Assembly (NCBI GenBank): GCA_009776805.1
Contig: WRNB01000007.1
Location: 1-38,823 of the forward strand
Origin: Candidatus Bathycorpusculum grumuli
GTDB taxonomy: Archaea > Thermoproteota > Bathyarchaeia > Bathyarchaeales > Bathycorpusculaceae
Reading direction: 5' to 3'
Length of the DNA stretch: 38,823 bases
The notes beneath the pieces are model-generated. The model was not told where the DNA came from. It made no database searches and saw nothing but the letters and a program-made list of their open reading frames with translations. Of this stretch, positions 3,676 through 32,799 are shown piece by piece (position 1 is the first letter of the stretch; each line of letters begins with the position of its first letter). A program made the translations under genes and the position numbers.

Positions 3676-3990
3676 TTATAGACCCCATGTAGAGCTTCAA
3701 TTTTTTTACGTGACCGTACAAGTTTAGCCCTAACTAGTGCATGTTAAGCAGCTTTCATACAAATAAGTTGGAGTCACTTTAAATCGATTGACACTAAATA
3801 CACTAATTCTTTTACTCATCAAACATCCCTCGTAATTATTGCGTCTTCAATAGTGATATTGTCATCCTATCTTATTAAAATGTCGTATTCACTATATCAG
3901 ATTCTATTTTTTGTAAGCATCATTTTTTACCTCTTGCACCCTATGTAGCAATATCATCAGGCTATCGTTAGATAAGGAAACTAAAGTACA

Positions 3991-4088
3991 GGTAACCTCC
4001 GAAAACCCCATTTCAAAAAACTAAACAACATAGATACACGGTTTACAGTATGTGATTTTTAGAAAAATATAATTTTTCGGAGGTCACC
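3991..4088. mobile_element. 98-bp MITE-like element, copy 1 (TSD TACA)
   Basis: ggtaacctccgaaaa...tttttcggaggtcacc terminal inverted repeats; direct repeats taca at 3987-3990 and 4089-4092; homologous 98-bp copy in inverse orientation at 32293-32390. Confidence 0.85.
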
Positions 4089-4359
4089 TACACAATTCAA
4101 CAGCATAAAAAACATTAGACCTTGTGCGTTATTAATTGCCAATTCAAAAATCAAATACATACTATCTAATAACACAAAAAAACAAATGCTAAAAAACGTA
4201 GAAATCATAATGCAAGCATGCAAAAAAGACCACCTATGTGCAATACCTTAAAAATCATCCACCATAACCCATACATGATTTCATGTAAGGTTTTTTCAAT
4301 AGATTATGATCACTATAATCTCATTTTGGAATAAGATACAATAAGTCTTGCTGTAGAAA

Positions 4360-5417
4360 TTATTTCCAGTAGTCATTTCTAATTTTTTCATATCCACGCT
4401 TTTTTAGAACGTCAGGTGTTTCTGTAAGCGAAGGAAACTCGTTTGATAATTCCACACAAAGACAGGATAATAATTCCTCACCTAATATTTTGGAGTATTT
4501 ACCACGTAGTGCTTTTTCATACCACTCAACCAAGTTTGTTTCTGTAATAATACTTTGTATGCGATTGCGCCAACCGATTTGATTGAGTATCGAAAGTATG
4601 AGTTTTTCTTCTGCGTCTTTACAAACAATAACTATTTTGTCGCTTGAAACGCCATCTACAATTTCTTCGGCTAATTCTTCATTAAGACTTAGATGTTTTA
4701 TCTAAAATAGCTGAACCCCAATTTGAATACATATCAAGTCCTCTATCAGCGGCGTTTGTAACACCGACACGAAAGACTTTTGCATTTTGCGTGTTTGTGT
4801 CATTGTTTATATCCAGACACATCACCATTTTCGCAAAACTAGAAAATTCTTCTAGCAAATATTGTTTTTTATCGTTGACAGAAACTTTTACTTTCAATTC
4901 CAATGCAGATACAAGCGTTGCGAACAATGCATAGACTATAACTTCATAAACTTTATCTATACTGCGTTTTAAGCCAGATTCAGTACGGAACGAATTAATG
5001 AACTTTATAATTTGAAAATCGACTTTTGTGGCGTTTAGACAATAATTTAACGCATCGGCAAGCTGTGTATGCTTATTCATAAAACGGTTGTAAATATAAG
5101 CTTCAACTGCACCAGTCGTCTCTATGTTTTCATCGCCAAGTATTTTAAGTATAATTGGCGGAATTGCGTTGTCATTGAATAAATCATCTTAAATCGTGTA
5201 GAACTTGTACAAATACGTCCCAATAAAACAAGGCTCATATCGTTTCGCCATTGCTTGCTTTTATTACGGTAATCATCAAGTTTCAATAAATTCAATGATT
5301 CAGGCTGCATTCTATGATGATACAAAATTTCAGCTACCTGTATAGGTTTGTAGAGATGTATCCGTGATTTACGGATAATTGTATCTAGTGCTATTTTAGC
5401 TCTTTTCTATCTGTCAT
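4360..5417 (-). pseudogene. HaeII-like type II restriction endonuclease, frameshifted
   Basis: Conceptual frames join: MTDRKELK/IALDTIIRKSRIHLYKPIQVAEILYHHRM...YRNKSKQWRND...GRICTSSTRF/DDLFNDNAIPPIILKILGDENIETTGAVEAYIYNRF...RVGVTNAADRGLDMYSNWGSAI/IKHLSLNEELAEEIVDG...IRNDYWK. Frame breaks near 5393, 5192 and 4702. Start overlaps the methyltransferase stop. Confidence 0.75.
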
Positions 5418-6504
5418 CGTTGTCATTGTACCTGATCTTCCATTCATGTTCTTTTAGTGCAAACAACATTTTCTCGGCAACTGCCTCTATAACTGGAATT
5501 GCTACACTATTTCCAGTTTGTTTTTTTATACTGCTATATGGTACTACTATTTTAAATGTATCAGGAAACCCTTGTAAACGAAGCATTTCACGAGCCGAAG
5601 GACGACGCTCGTTATTTATAAGGATATAATTTGCCGAAGCTCCTGCACGGAGAGCACAAGAAAAATAATGCGGCGTAACTAAACCCCCTACATTTTCGTG
5701 AGTTACATATGGACGTTCAGGTATCTTTTTCATTCGCTCAAATCGACTTTGCTTAATGCAATCTTTAACCCACAATGATTTGTCTAATTCATCCTCATTT
5801 TCGAGAATATCGTCTAAGGCAAGCCTTTCCCCTTTTGGCACAGGGTTTGGAAAACTAAAATGAACCTCATTAAGAAATCCACAAATAATGATTCGTTCAC
5901 GTTTCTGCGGAACGCCAAAATCAAGAGCATTTAGCACTTTTGAGTGTACATAATATCCCAACGCTTGCAAATGCGAAATAATGGTACTAAATGTTTTACC
6001 ATTGTTATGTGCTGTAAGGTTGCGAACATTTTCTAGCATAAAAGCTTTAGGGTGTTTATCTCGAAGGATACGTTCGATTTCAAAAAAAAGTGTTCCCTGT
6101 GTTTCATGCTTAAAACCATCTTTATCGCCTATTATGCTAAACGGTTGACAAGGAAAACCACCAAGCAGTATATCAAAATCAGAGATGTCCTTTGAAGCAA
6201 TTTTTGTAATGTCACCATGTGGAGTTTCTCCAAAATTTGCTTCATAAGTTTTAGCTGCCTGTTTATCCCATTCTGATGAAAAAACGCATTGGCCACCAAC
6301 ATGTTCAAAACCAAGGCGGGTACCCCCAATCCCTGCAAATAAATCTATAAATCTAAAATTGTCCCATGATGAATTTTGGAACTGTTGCGTCTTAAATTCA
6401 GCATTGTATAATGTGGGTGCACTATCAAAAATGGATAATTGTACACTTTTCTCCTTCCCCGTGTATATTGTCTGCCCGCTCATCGGTTTCATCTTATTTA
6501 TCAA
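5407..6504 (-). CDS. DNA (cytosine-5-)-methyltransferase
   Basis: FIDLFAGIGGTRLGFEHVGG (motif I), GGFPCQPFSIIG (motif IV), MLENVRNL (motif VI), SAREMLRLQGFP and QTGNSVAIPV (motifs IX/X). Confidence 0.95.
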   Translation of the reverse strand: MINKMKPMSGQTIYTGKEKSVQLSIFDSAPTLYNAEFKTQQFQNSSWDNFRFIDLFAGIGGTRLGFEHVGGQCVFSSEWDKQAAKTYEANFGETPHGDITKIASKDISDFDILLGGFPCQPFSIIGDKDGFKHETQGTLFFEIERILRDKHPKAFMLENVRNLTAHNNGKTFSTIISHLQALGYYVHSKVLNALDFGVPQKRERIIICGFLNEVHFSFPNPVPKGERLALDDILENEDELDKSLWVKDCIKQSRFERMKKIPERPYVTHENVGGLVTPHYFSCALRAGASANYILINNERRPSAREMLRLQGFPDTFKIVVPYSSIKKQTGNSVAIPVIEAVAEKMLFALKEHEWKIRYNDNDDR

Positions 6505-7006: not shown

Positions 7007-7081
7007 TTAGTATCTTAGGTAAAATTTTTTGCAAGGTGTGTTGAATTTTTGTTTGTTTTGGTTTTGGCTTAGCCGTTGGGT
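7007..7081 (+). repeat. dispersed leader element, copy B
   Basis: ttagtatcttaggtaaaattttttgcaaggtgtgttgaatttttgtttgttttggttttggcttagccgttggg; aligned with copies A and C. A degenerate partial copy lies at ~7286-7323. Confidence 0.75.
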
Positions 7082-10645: not shown

Positions 10646-11615
10646 CCATAAGCAACATACAAACTCTAAAAAATACTTCCACAAATACACAAACCATAAC
10701 AAGACTAAAAAAAACCATATGTCCATAACCTGCGCACAAGTGTTGTAGTGTAACTTTTTTTGCGACAATCTAGTAAATATTTTGGTTGCAAAAACCCTAC
10801 AACATATTATTTTTACAGATACACAATAATTCAGTTCATTGTGAAAAAACAGCCTACAAAACGCGTGCGATGGTTATGTACGTATGGATTTTTTTGGAAA
10901 TTGTGGGGTGTGTTGCGGGAATGAACGTGTCCTTGCCACCCACAAAGACCCGAGGATAAAAAATGGCATGAACTACATACACTACCTTTATATACGCTGC
11001 AAATGGAAATGATTCATAATATATAAATATAACTTAATTTTACAAACAACCAACAAAACACAATTACGCAAACAATAACTACAGGTTAAACCCTTCACTT
11101 CTAACAAAGCCCAGAACTCTCGTAAAACCTCACTTTTTCGCGTACCAAAAAATATACATCATAATTTCTCCCGTATCATAATTTAATGCACACCACAACC
11201 AGCAAAAATGTTTTTTACAATAAACCCTACCCCACATCTCACCATTTCAAAACAAATTTTTAATAATTTATCAAGATACATATTTTGAGTTGATATTTAT
11301 AAAAAATTTGTTTTTTTAAAACAAACATCATAGTATTTGGGCTTATGTTTAAAGCATGCACAGCATCACATATGCCGCTACCGTTTAACACTATTTTTAT
11401 AATTAATAGTTTGGTTTTTGGTTAGCTCCATTGCTTGCGTATTGTGTCTGAAATGTTTTTTGTATACTTTGTATTTTAGGTGTTGTTTGTTGTTTGATGT
11501 TGTCGTTTTTTTCGATTTTTGTTTTTAATGGTTGTGTGTGGTTGTTTTGTTTATTGTGTTTGAGTGTTTTTGTGTTGTTTGTCATGTTTATAAACCATTT
11601 TAAACATGACATTTG

Positions 11616-31534: not shown

Positions 31535-32195
31535 TTTTAAATCTCCGATGCGCAATCACAGACGTAAAAGCAATTTATATGGCTTTCCGTATCACAACTA
31601 ATATTTCAATTCTAACGACCAATAAGTATCCTAGCGAAGGATCAATTCGAACGCGTGAGGTGTGTCAACAAACTTGAATACAACTATCAATATATAGTTT
31701 TTCCAAACACCCTAACACGAACAAAAAAAATAAAAACAAAAAAAACACTTAAAAACCCAAAAAAGACCTTGCTATTTAAAAAACAGGTAAAAACTTGATT
31801 TTAACAGTAGACATTAGGCACTAATCACCATTTTGATGAATTTGTTAGCGTAATTTCGCGATTTTTGTATTTTTACGCATTTGTTTTACTCATTTAACAG
31901 TGCATATACGCGATTTGAGAACACAAAAATAATAAGTACTAAAGCATAGTTTAAACAAAAATCCACACAAACGCGTCAAAAAATTAAGCCACAAACAATT
32001 TTGGGACAAAAAAGAACACATAAAAGTACCCTAACAAATTACCACAACATATACCTCAAATAGTTGAAATTAAAGTTTTTGAAGAAAAAAATAACATGTA
32101 TAAACCATCTGCTGAATTTGGAGAAAAGAACAAACTATCCAATTAAATGATATTAAACAAGTCCAACAGAGACTATATGAAAAGATTTTGTCGTA

Positions 32196-32273
32196 CCCTA
32201 CTCGGCTGAGCCGAAACCAAAACAAACAAAAAATCTACACGTTTTGCAAAGAATTTACCAGTAAGATACTAAA
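32196..32273 (-). repeat. dispersed leader element, copy C
   Basis: Reverse complement: agtatcttactggtaaattctttgcaaaacgtgtagattttttgtttgttttggtttcggctcagccgagtaggg; matches copies A and B. Confidence 0.75.
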
Positions 32274-32292
32274 CTCTCACAAAAAAACAATA

Positions 32293-32390
32293 GGCGACCT
32301 CCGAAAACCTATATTTTCCCAAAAATCACGTGCCGAAAACAGTGTAACTATGTTACTTAGTTTTTTGAAATGGGGTTTTCGGAGGCTGCC
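32293..32390. mobile_element. 98-bp MITE-like element, copy 2 (TSD AATA)
   Basis: ggcgacctccgaaaacc...ggttttcggaggctgcc; direct repeats aata at 32289-32292 and 32391-32394; inverse orientation to copy 1. Confidence 0.85.
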
Positions 32391-32799
32391 AATAAAAACA
32401 AAACAAAAACACTTACCAACCACATCACACAACAAACACACAAACAAAACAAAAAATATCAAATGTAAAAACAAAATTTCTATACAATATGTAAAAAAGT
32501 TCACGTGTAAGATATAATATTCACGTTTTTCGGATACCGATACGGCCACATAGATAACAAGTTTACAGACAACCTATGTTAGTTTGCGGTTGTGTTTGTT
32601 ATGATAAAGTAGATTTGCTGACATGTTTTTGCTTGTGTTTTTTTAATTTTATTGTTAAATGAATATTGATGCTTAGTTAAGAGAAAAATCGTCTCTGTAT
32701 GGGTGAAAAGTTAATTAGGCATGTTTTTTGAGTTAATTATATTAGTTATGTTATTTTATTTATATATCAGGTGTAATCATAGTATAGAGGACACTTGGT

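What the first reader, a model, noticed from the sequence alone, without database searches (positions are those of the whole stretch)
3991..4088. 98-bp MITE-like family (copy 1) with TIRs and 4-bp target duplication
Seen directly: 98 bp starting ggtaacctccgaaaacccc and ending tttttcggaggtcacc, flanked by TACA on both sides. The other copy (32293-32390) is also exactly 98 bp, aligns end to end with scattered substitutions (core cccatttcaaaaaactaa..acatag.tacac...gtgatttttrgraaaatata), lies in inverse orientation, and has a different 4-bp duplication (AATA). Two copies of equal length with independent TSDs fit a non-autonomous transposable element mobilised by a transposase not encoded here.
Basis: seen in the sequence. 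Interest (0 to 1): 0.8.

Follow-up and report, generated by a model that had tools for sequence, protein, structure and literature searches.

The report
98-bp archaeal MITE family, IS5-type
A 98-base piece of DNA with no genes of its own has spread to at least 26 places in this termite-gut archaeon (and at least 40 in a distant relative), most likely moved by the enzyme of a larger jumping gene of the common IS5 family; it is a real new example of a well-known kind of element.

Summary
3991-4088 and 32293-32390 are two members of a 98-bp repeat family with imperfect 15-17-bp terminal inverted repeats (TIRs, GGYRRCCTCCGAAAA). There are about 26 copies or more in the host genome (genus Ca. Bathycorpusculum, Bathyarchaeia, termite gut) and at least 40 in one same-genus genome. 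Of 58 full-length copies, 33 have an exact 4-bp target duplication (3.3 expected by re-pairing flanks; none longer), usually T/A-rich (TATA, TAAA). Related empty sites exist for several copies, including window copy 1. The window copies are not a segmental duplication. The likely mobiliser is an IS5-family insertion sequence (about 1.29 kb, same TIR, 4-bp duplication). It is seen whole but frameshifted in a same-genus genome, and its ends are multi-copy in the host genome, where contigs break inside it. Beyond the TIR the 98-mer shows no similarity to that IS, so it is a type II MITE; separate 129-147-bp MITEs here look like the IS's deletion derivatives. Patchy spread, with up to 91% identity to a species only 71% identical in a ribosomal region, suggests horizontal transfer. 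Archaeal MITEs, including IS5-linked ones, are known, so this is a new member of a known kind.

The parts
3991..4088 (+). MITE copy 1, 98 bp, gene-free; left TIR 3991-4005, right TIR 4074-4088
   Evidence: related empty site in G000:C135 (L032:1050-1112, 81% over 64 bp)
3987..3990 (.). target duplication of copy 1, left (TACA)
4089..4092 (.). target duplication of copy 1, right (TACA)
32293..32390 (-). MITE copy 2, 98 bp, inverted; 98/98 identical to the copy at G000:C151:3292-3389, which has a different duplication (TACA)
32289..32292 (.). target duplication of copy 2, left (AATA)
32391..32394 (.). target duplication of copy 2, right (AATA)
10706..10887 (.). another repeat of the genome; an uninterrupted relative of the targets of two MITE copies elsewhere (G000:C52 and G000:C8), so it serves as their related empty site

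Best explanation
[quoted passage not shown] It carries no gene and is mobilised in trans by the DDE transposase of an IS5-family insertion sequence that has the same TIR (GGYRRCCTCCGAAAA) and makes the same 4-bp target duplication. The transposase would bind the two TIRs, free the element, and insert it with a 4-bp stagger into T/A-rich, mostly intergenic DNA (often TATA or TAAA); host repair then yields the direct repeats. Shown: the family, the ends, the duplications, the related empty sites, insertion away from ORFs, and an IS with the same ends and duplication length. Inferred: that this IS's enzyme does the moving, that an intact copy exists or existed in the host, and that the family spread between species horizontally.
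For: About 26 copies in G000 and at least 40 in G024. Exact 4-bp duplications in 33 of 58 copies, 3.3 expected and at most 9 in 2000 re-pairings, none of 5 bp or more. Related empty sites with a single target for L011/L012 (each supplies the empty site of the other), L110, L105, L008 and window copy 1. Insertions fall in ORFs of at least 100 aa in 3 of 55 cases against 115 of 220 random nearby positions. Identical copies with different duplications: L005 TACA, L006 (window copy 2) TATT = AATA on the + strand. IS with the same ends: L068:1433-2721, 1289 bp, TTGA on both sides; L069:1397-2769, 1373 bp, TACA on both sides. Its split transposase matches NCBIfam NF033581 (IS5 family) over positions 2-284 of 285 in three pieces of 112.7, 63.4 and 43.5 bits, plus Pfam DUF772 and DDE_Tnp_1. 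In G000 three contigs (C8, C72, C141) stop 100-101 bp inside identical IS left ends, as collapsed multi-copy elements do. MITEs of 129-147 bp with the same TIR, also with 4-bp duplications, align beyond the TIR with the IS ends. One 98-mer (L008) sits inside such a derivative.
Against: No intact transposase gene was found: every copy of this IS read so far is frameshifted or cut by a contig end. The interior of the 98-mer does not resemble this IS beyond the TIR (z below 1), so its parent could be another, unseen IS with the same TIR. 25 of 58 copies lack an exact duplication, which fits age or deletion but was not resolved copy by copy.
Confidence: 0.93

Rival explanations
1. The 98-mer is a MITE, but its parent and mobiliser is a different IS (not the 1.29-kb IS5 element), with the same TIR by common descent.
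For: The interior and subterminal bases match neither end of the IS. The right end is usually GGCGACC, where the IS ends are mostly GGCARCC.
Against: No other IS with this TIR and a full transposase was found. Classes C and D (C64, C63) have single TIRs with other neighbours, C64 beside fragments of a PF01609 transposase. TIR, duplication length and T/A-rich target agree with the IS found.
Confidence: 0.25
2. The repeat is a structured RNA, terminator or regulatory repeat whose copies spread by recombination; the duplications are incidental.
For: Both strands fold into a stem-loop better than shuffles (z -3.7 to -4.7). Copies are intergenic.
Against: The fold is explained by the TIRs. Exact 4-bp duplications in 33 of 58 copies and clean empty sites require insertion. 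There is no Rfam match in the window. Copies occur in both orientations with unrelated neighbours.
Confidence: 0.03
3. The two window copies are pieces of a larger duplicated segment.
For: Copy 2 and copy L007 both lie next to the same 77-bp repeat.
Against: Flanks of copies 1 and 2 do not match each other and their duplications differ. L007 and copy 2 differ in distance to the 77-bp repeat and in their duplications.
Confidence: 0.01

Closest known systems
Archaeal MITEs linked to IS5-family elements (IS5-linked MITEs of Methanosarcina and Methanococcoides in PMC3852290)
   Same: Short, gene-free, multi-copy, TIRs of 15-17 bp, linked to IS5-family ISs; in that paper many archaeal MITEs share little more than the TIR with their IS.
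   Different: Shorter (98 bp against 140-252 bp listed there). A clear 4-bp duplication, where those IS5 entries list 0 or 3 bp. A different host class (Bathyarchaeia).
Type II MITEs (definition in PMC10969869: similarity to the autonomous IS confined to the TIR)
   Same: Only the TIR is shared with the 1.29-kb IS.
   Different: The mobiliser is inferred, not proven; a closer parental IS may be missing from the draft assembly.
IS5 family of insertion sequences (NCBIfam NF033581; Pfam DUF772 + DDE_Tnp_1)
   Same: The candidate mobiliser has these domains, a length of 1.3 kb, TIRs and a 4-bp duplication. From memory, IS5 itself duplicates 4 bp (YTAR).
   Different: The target here leans to TATA/TAAA rather than YTAR. 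All full-length copies seen have frameshifts.
MITECca01 of Cardinium (PMC9769881)
   Same: A MITE that outnumbers its IS and sits mostly between genes and within other mobile elements.
   Different: That MITE derives from an IS982-family element with intact copies in the same genome.

Membership tests
MITE (prokaryotic) | Short (under about 500 bp), no transposase gene | tested here: met
   98 bp, too short to encode a transposase
MITE (prokaryotic) | Terminal inverted repeats | tested here: met
   15-17 bp imperfect TIRs in most copies
MITE (prokaryotic) | Target-site duplication of constant length | tested here: met
   33 of 58 exactly 4 bp against 3.3 expected
MITE (prokaryotic) | Multi-copy with independent insertion sites and empty sites | tested here: met
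MITE (prokaryotic) | An autonomous-type partner with the same TIR and duplication length | tested here: met
   L068 and L069; full-length but frameshifted; in the host genome only its ends are assembled
MITE (prokaryotic) | Movement by that partner's transposase | not testable with these tools
   needs a transposition assay
IS5 family (the candidate mobiliser) | DDE transposase of the IS5 type over its full length | tested here: met
   NF033581 positions 2-134, 137-200, 214-284 of 285 in three frames of L068; no single piece reaches the curated cut-off of 140 bits, since the gene is frameshifted
IS5 family (the candidate mobiliser) | Intact single transposase ORF (needed for autonomy, not for family membership) | tested here: not met
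   All copies read are frameshifted or cut off; an intact copy may be hidden in contig gaps
Type I MITE (internal deletion derivative of the 1.29-kb IS) | Similarity to the IS beyond the TIR | tested here: not met
   z below 1 for both ends and both orientations, whereas the 129-147-bp MITEs give z of 3-6 at most ends

The most novel reading that the evidence does not exclude
A gene-free element has moved horizontally between distantly related archaea of one genus and multiplied separately in each, riding on the transposase of a resident IS that is not its parent. Basis: the 98-mer is up to 91% identical between two species whose ribosomal-protein region is only 71% identical in DNA, and it was not found in six nearer relatives of the host.
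Probability: 0.5. Interest if true: 0.4.

Novelty: new member of a known kind. Interest (0 to 1): 0.27.

Why it matters
It adds a well-supported MITE family, with its likely IS5-type driver and derivative families, to Bathyarchaeia, a class with almost no cultures; the paper searches made here found no report of mobile elements in this genus. It suggests that repeats of this kind break assemblies and swell intergenic regions in these metagenome-assembled genomes. The patchy spread between species offers a simple marker of horizontal DNA flow among termite-gut archaea.

Tried and rejected
PF13586 found nothing in G000 or G024. The PF01609 match on C74 (L030, an intact 417-aa DDE transposase) has no TIR of this type nearby and was rejected as the partner. 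No relatives were found among viral contigs, by IS protein or by MITE end. The solved-structure search with the transposase N-terminus gave nothing. There was no Rfam match in the window. The idea that the 98-mer is a deletion derivative of the 1.29-kb IS was tested and dropped. An orthologous insertion shared by G000 and G024 was looked for and not seen. The apparent empty sites for L006 and L019 were judged too weak or too low in complexity and are not counted.

Full report
Observation. The two 98-bp sequences are present at the stated coordinates with the stated ends and flanks. They are 83/98 identical without gaps once copy 2 is reversed. All four exact matches of GGNRNCCTCCGAAAA in the window are at their ends, where shuffles give none.

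The family. The 98-mer of copy 1 finds 29 matches in its genome (2.29 Mb, 173 contigs), about 26 of them full length or nearly so; the count is a lower bound because only 40 of 67 candidates were scored. A search of 60 relatives finds it in one same-genus genome, G024, with at least 40 copies, and gives one trace match in G021. The other 29 same-genus genomes and all outside the genus gave nothing at that threshold. The TIR itself (exact pattern) is common only in G000 (56), G024 (84), G002 (34) and G012 (8) among 32 genomes of the genus.

Host. A scan of named genomes with the IS protein matched Candidatus Bathycorpusculum termitum Cus372_bin2 (same DNA as G012), Ca. B. soli Pmx449_bin19 (as G031), Jx357_bin35 (as G024) and Nl494_bin6 (as G002). 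The window's own genome is of the same genus, Bathycorpusculum (Bathyarchaeia; described in PMC10684969); its species name was not shown.

Target duplications. With ends fixed by alignment to a consensus, 33 of 58 full-length copies have identical 4-bp flanks; random re-pairing of left and right flanks gives 3.3 on average and at most 9 in 2000 trials. No copy shares 5 bp or more. TATA (9) and TAAA (5) are the commonest; the first base is T in 28 of 33 and the last is A in 25 of 33.

Empty sites. Joining the flanks of each copy in a script and comparing them with all DNA at hand shows related uninterrupted sites. Copies L011 (C8) and L012 (C52) lie at different places in the same repeat, so each shows the other's empty site; a third, uninterrupted relative is in the window at 10706-10887. 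Further cases are L110 (against L121), L105 (against several G024 repeats), L008 (against L010, L089, L014) and window copy 1 (against L032, 81% over 64 bp, with CACA in place of TACA). At the locus of copy 2, the intergenic stretch of about 985 bp (31737-32720) is 56-71 bp in G021 and G027, and no TIR is found there in seven relatives; this shows the region expanded but does not define the insertion to the base.

Not a segmental duplication. Comparison of 1.5-kb flanks shows no copy pair with shared flanks on both sides, apart from overlapping fetches and other small repeats. Copy 2 is identical to the copy on C151 yet has a different duplication, evidence of a fairly recent move. Only 3 of 55 insertion points fall in ORFs of 100 aa or more, against 115 of 220 random positions in the same loci.

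The likely mobiliser. Many single TIRs in G000 lie near contig ends. They are of two main kinds, A and B, which in G012 are the left and right ends of one 1289-bp element flanked by TTGA (L068:1433-2721); a 1373-bp relative in G031 is flanked by TACA. The element encodes an IS5-type transposase, split by frameshifts: DUF772 and DDE_Tnp_1, and NF033581 over 2-284 of 285 in three pieces. In G000, contigs C8, C72 and C141 end 100-101 bp inside identical A ends, which suggests several near-identical copies that the assembler collapsed; the interior, and so the state of the transposase gene, is unknown there.

Relation of MITE to IS. Elements of 129-147 bp (L049, L050, L055) have the same TIR and 4-bp duplications (AGCG, AATA, TAAA; read) and resemble the A and B ends beyond the TIR (z 3-6 at most ends; 1.3 at one), so they look like deletion derivatives. 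The 98-mer does not (z below 1). By the definitions in PMC10969869 the former are type I and the latter type II. One 98-mer copy, L008, has inserted into a type I copy.

Spread. On a tree of 55 copies the genomes are strongly clustered (4 changes against 18 in shuffles), with few well-supported deep forks, so each genome probably amplified its own stock. The best match between genomes is 91%, yet the ribosomal-protein region next to copy 2 is 71% identical between G000 and G024 and 86-87% between G000 and six relatives in which the 98-mer was not found, apart from one trace match in G021. Unselected DNA should not be better conserved than ribosomal-protein genes under vertical descent, so horizontal transfer is the simplest reading; it remains an inference.

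Known background. MITEs are known in several archaea, and IS5-linked ones have been listed with lengths of 140-252 bp (PMC3852290; PMC10969869). The searches made here found no paper on mobile elements in Bathycorpusculum, within an open-licence library only. The finding is therefore ordinary in kind, well supported, and new as a family.

Noticed in passing
window 4350-5420 (-) and 5407-6504 (-): A HaeII-like restriction endonuclease gene (PF09554) is broken into three frames that together cover profile positions 1-338, beside a C5-cytosine methylase ORF that looks whole: a methylase apparently left without its working nuclease.
   Followed up: partly
window 32196-32272, 964-1040, 7007-7075: A second, about 77-bp repeat with a palindrome (CTCGGCTGAGCCG) and the end GATACTAA, also in several other contigs and in relatives; MITE copy L007 sits exactly at its end.
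   Followed up: partly
window 10706-10887: A third repeat of at least 180 bp, related copies of which carry MITE insertions on C52 and C8.
   Followed up: partly
window 31737-32720: The intergenic region upstream of the ribosomal-protein operon (S3 and neighbours) is about 985 bp, against 56-71 bp in two relatives, and is rich in repeats (31860-31944 recurs in G002, G021, G010).
   Followed up: partly
L053:3533-3619 (G000:C63), also C22:20553-20639, C108:941-1027, C89:3704-3788: A further MITE-like family of about 85-87 bp with the same TIR but another interior.
   Followed up: partly
contig ends C141/C157, C72/C118, C48/C15 of G000: Flanking tetranucleotides of the A and B ends of the IS agree pairwise (TAAA, TATG, TATA), which may show which contigs adjoin across a missing IS copy.
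   Followed up: no
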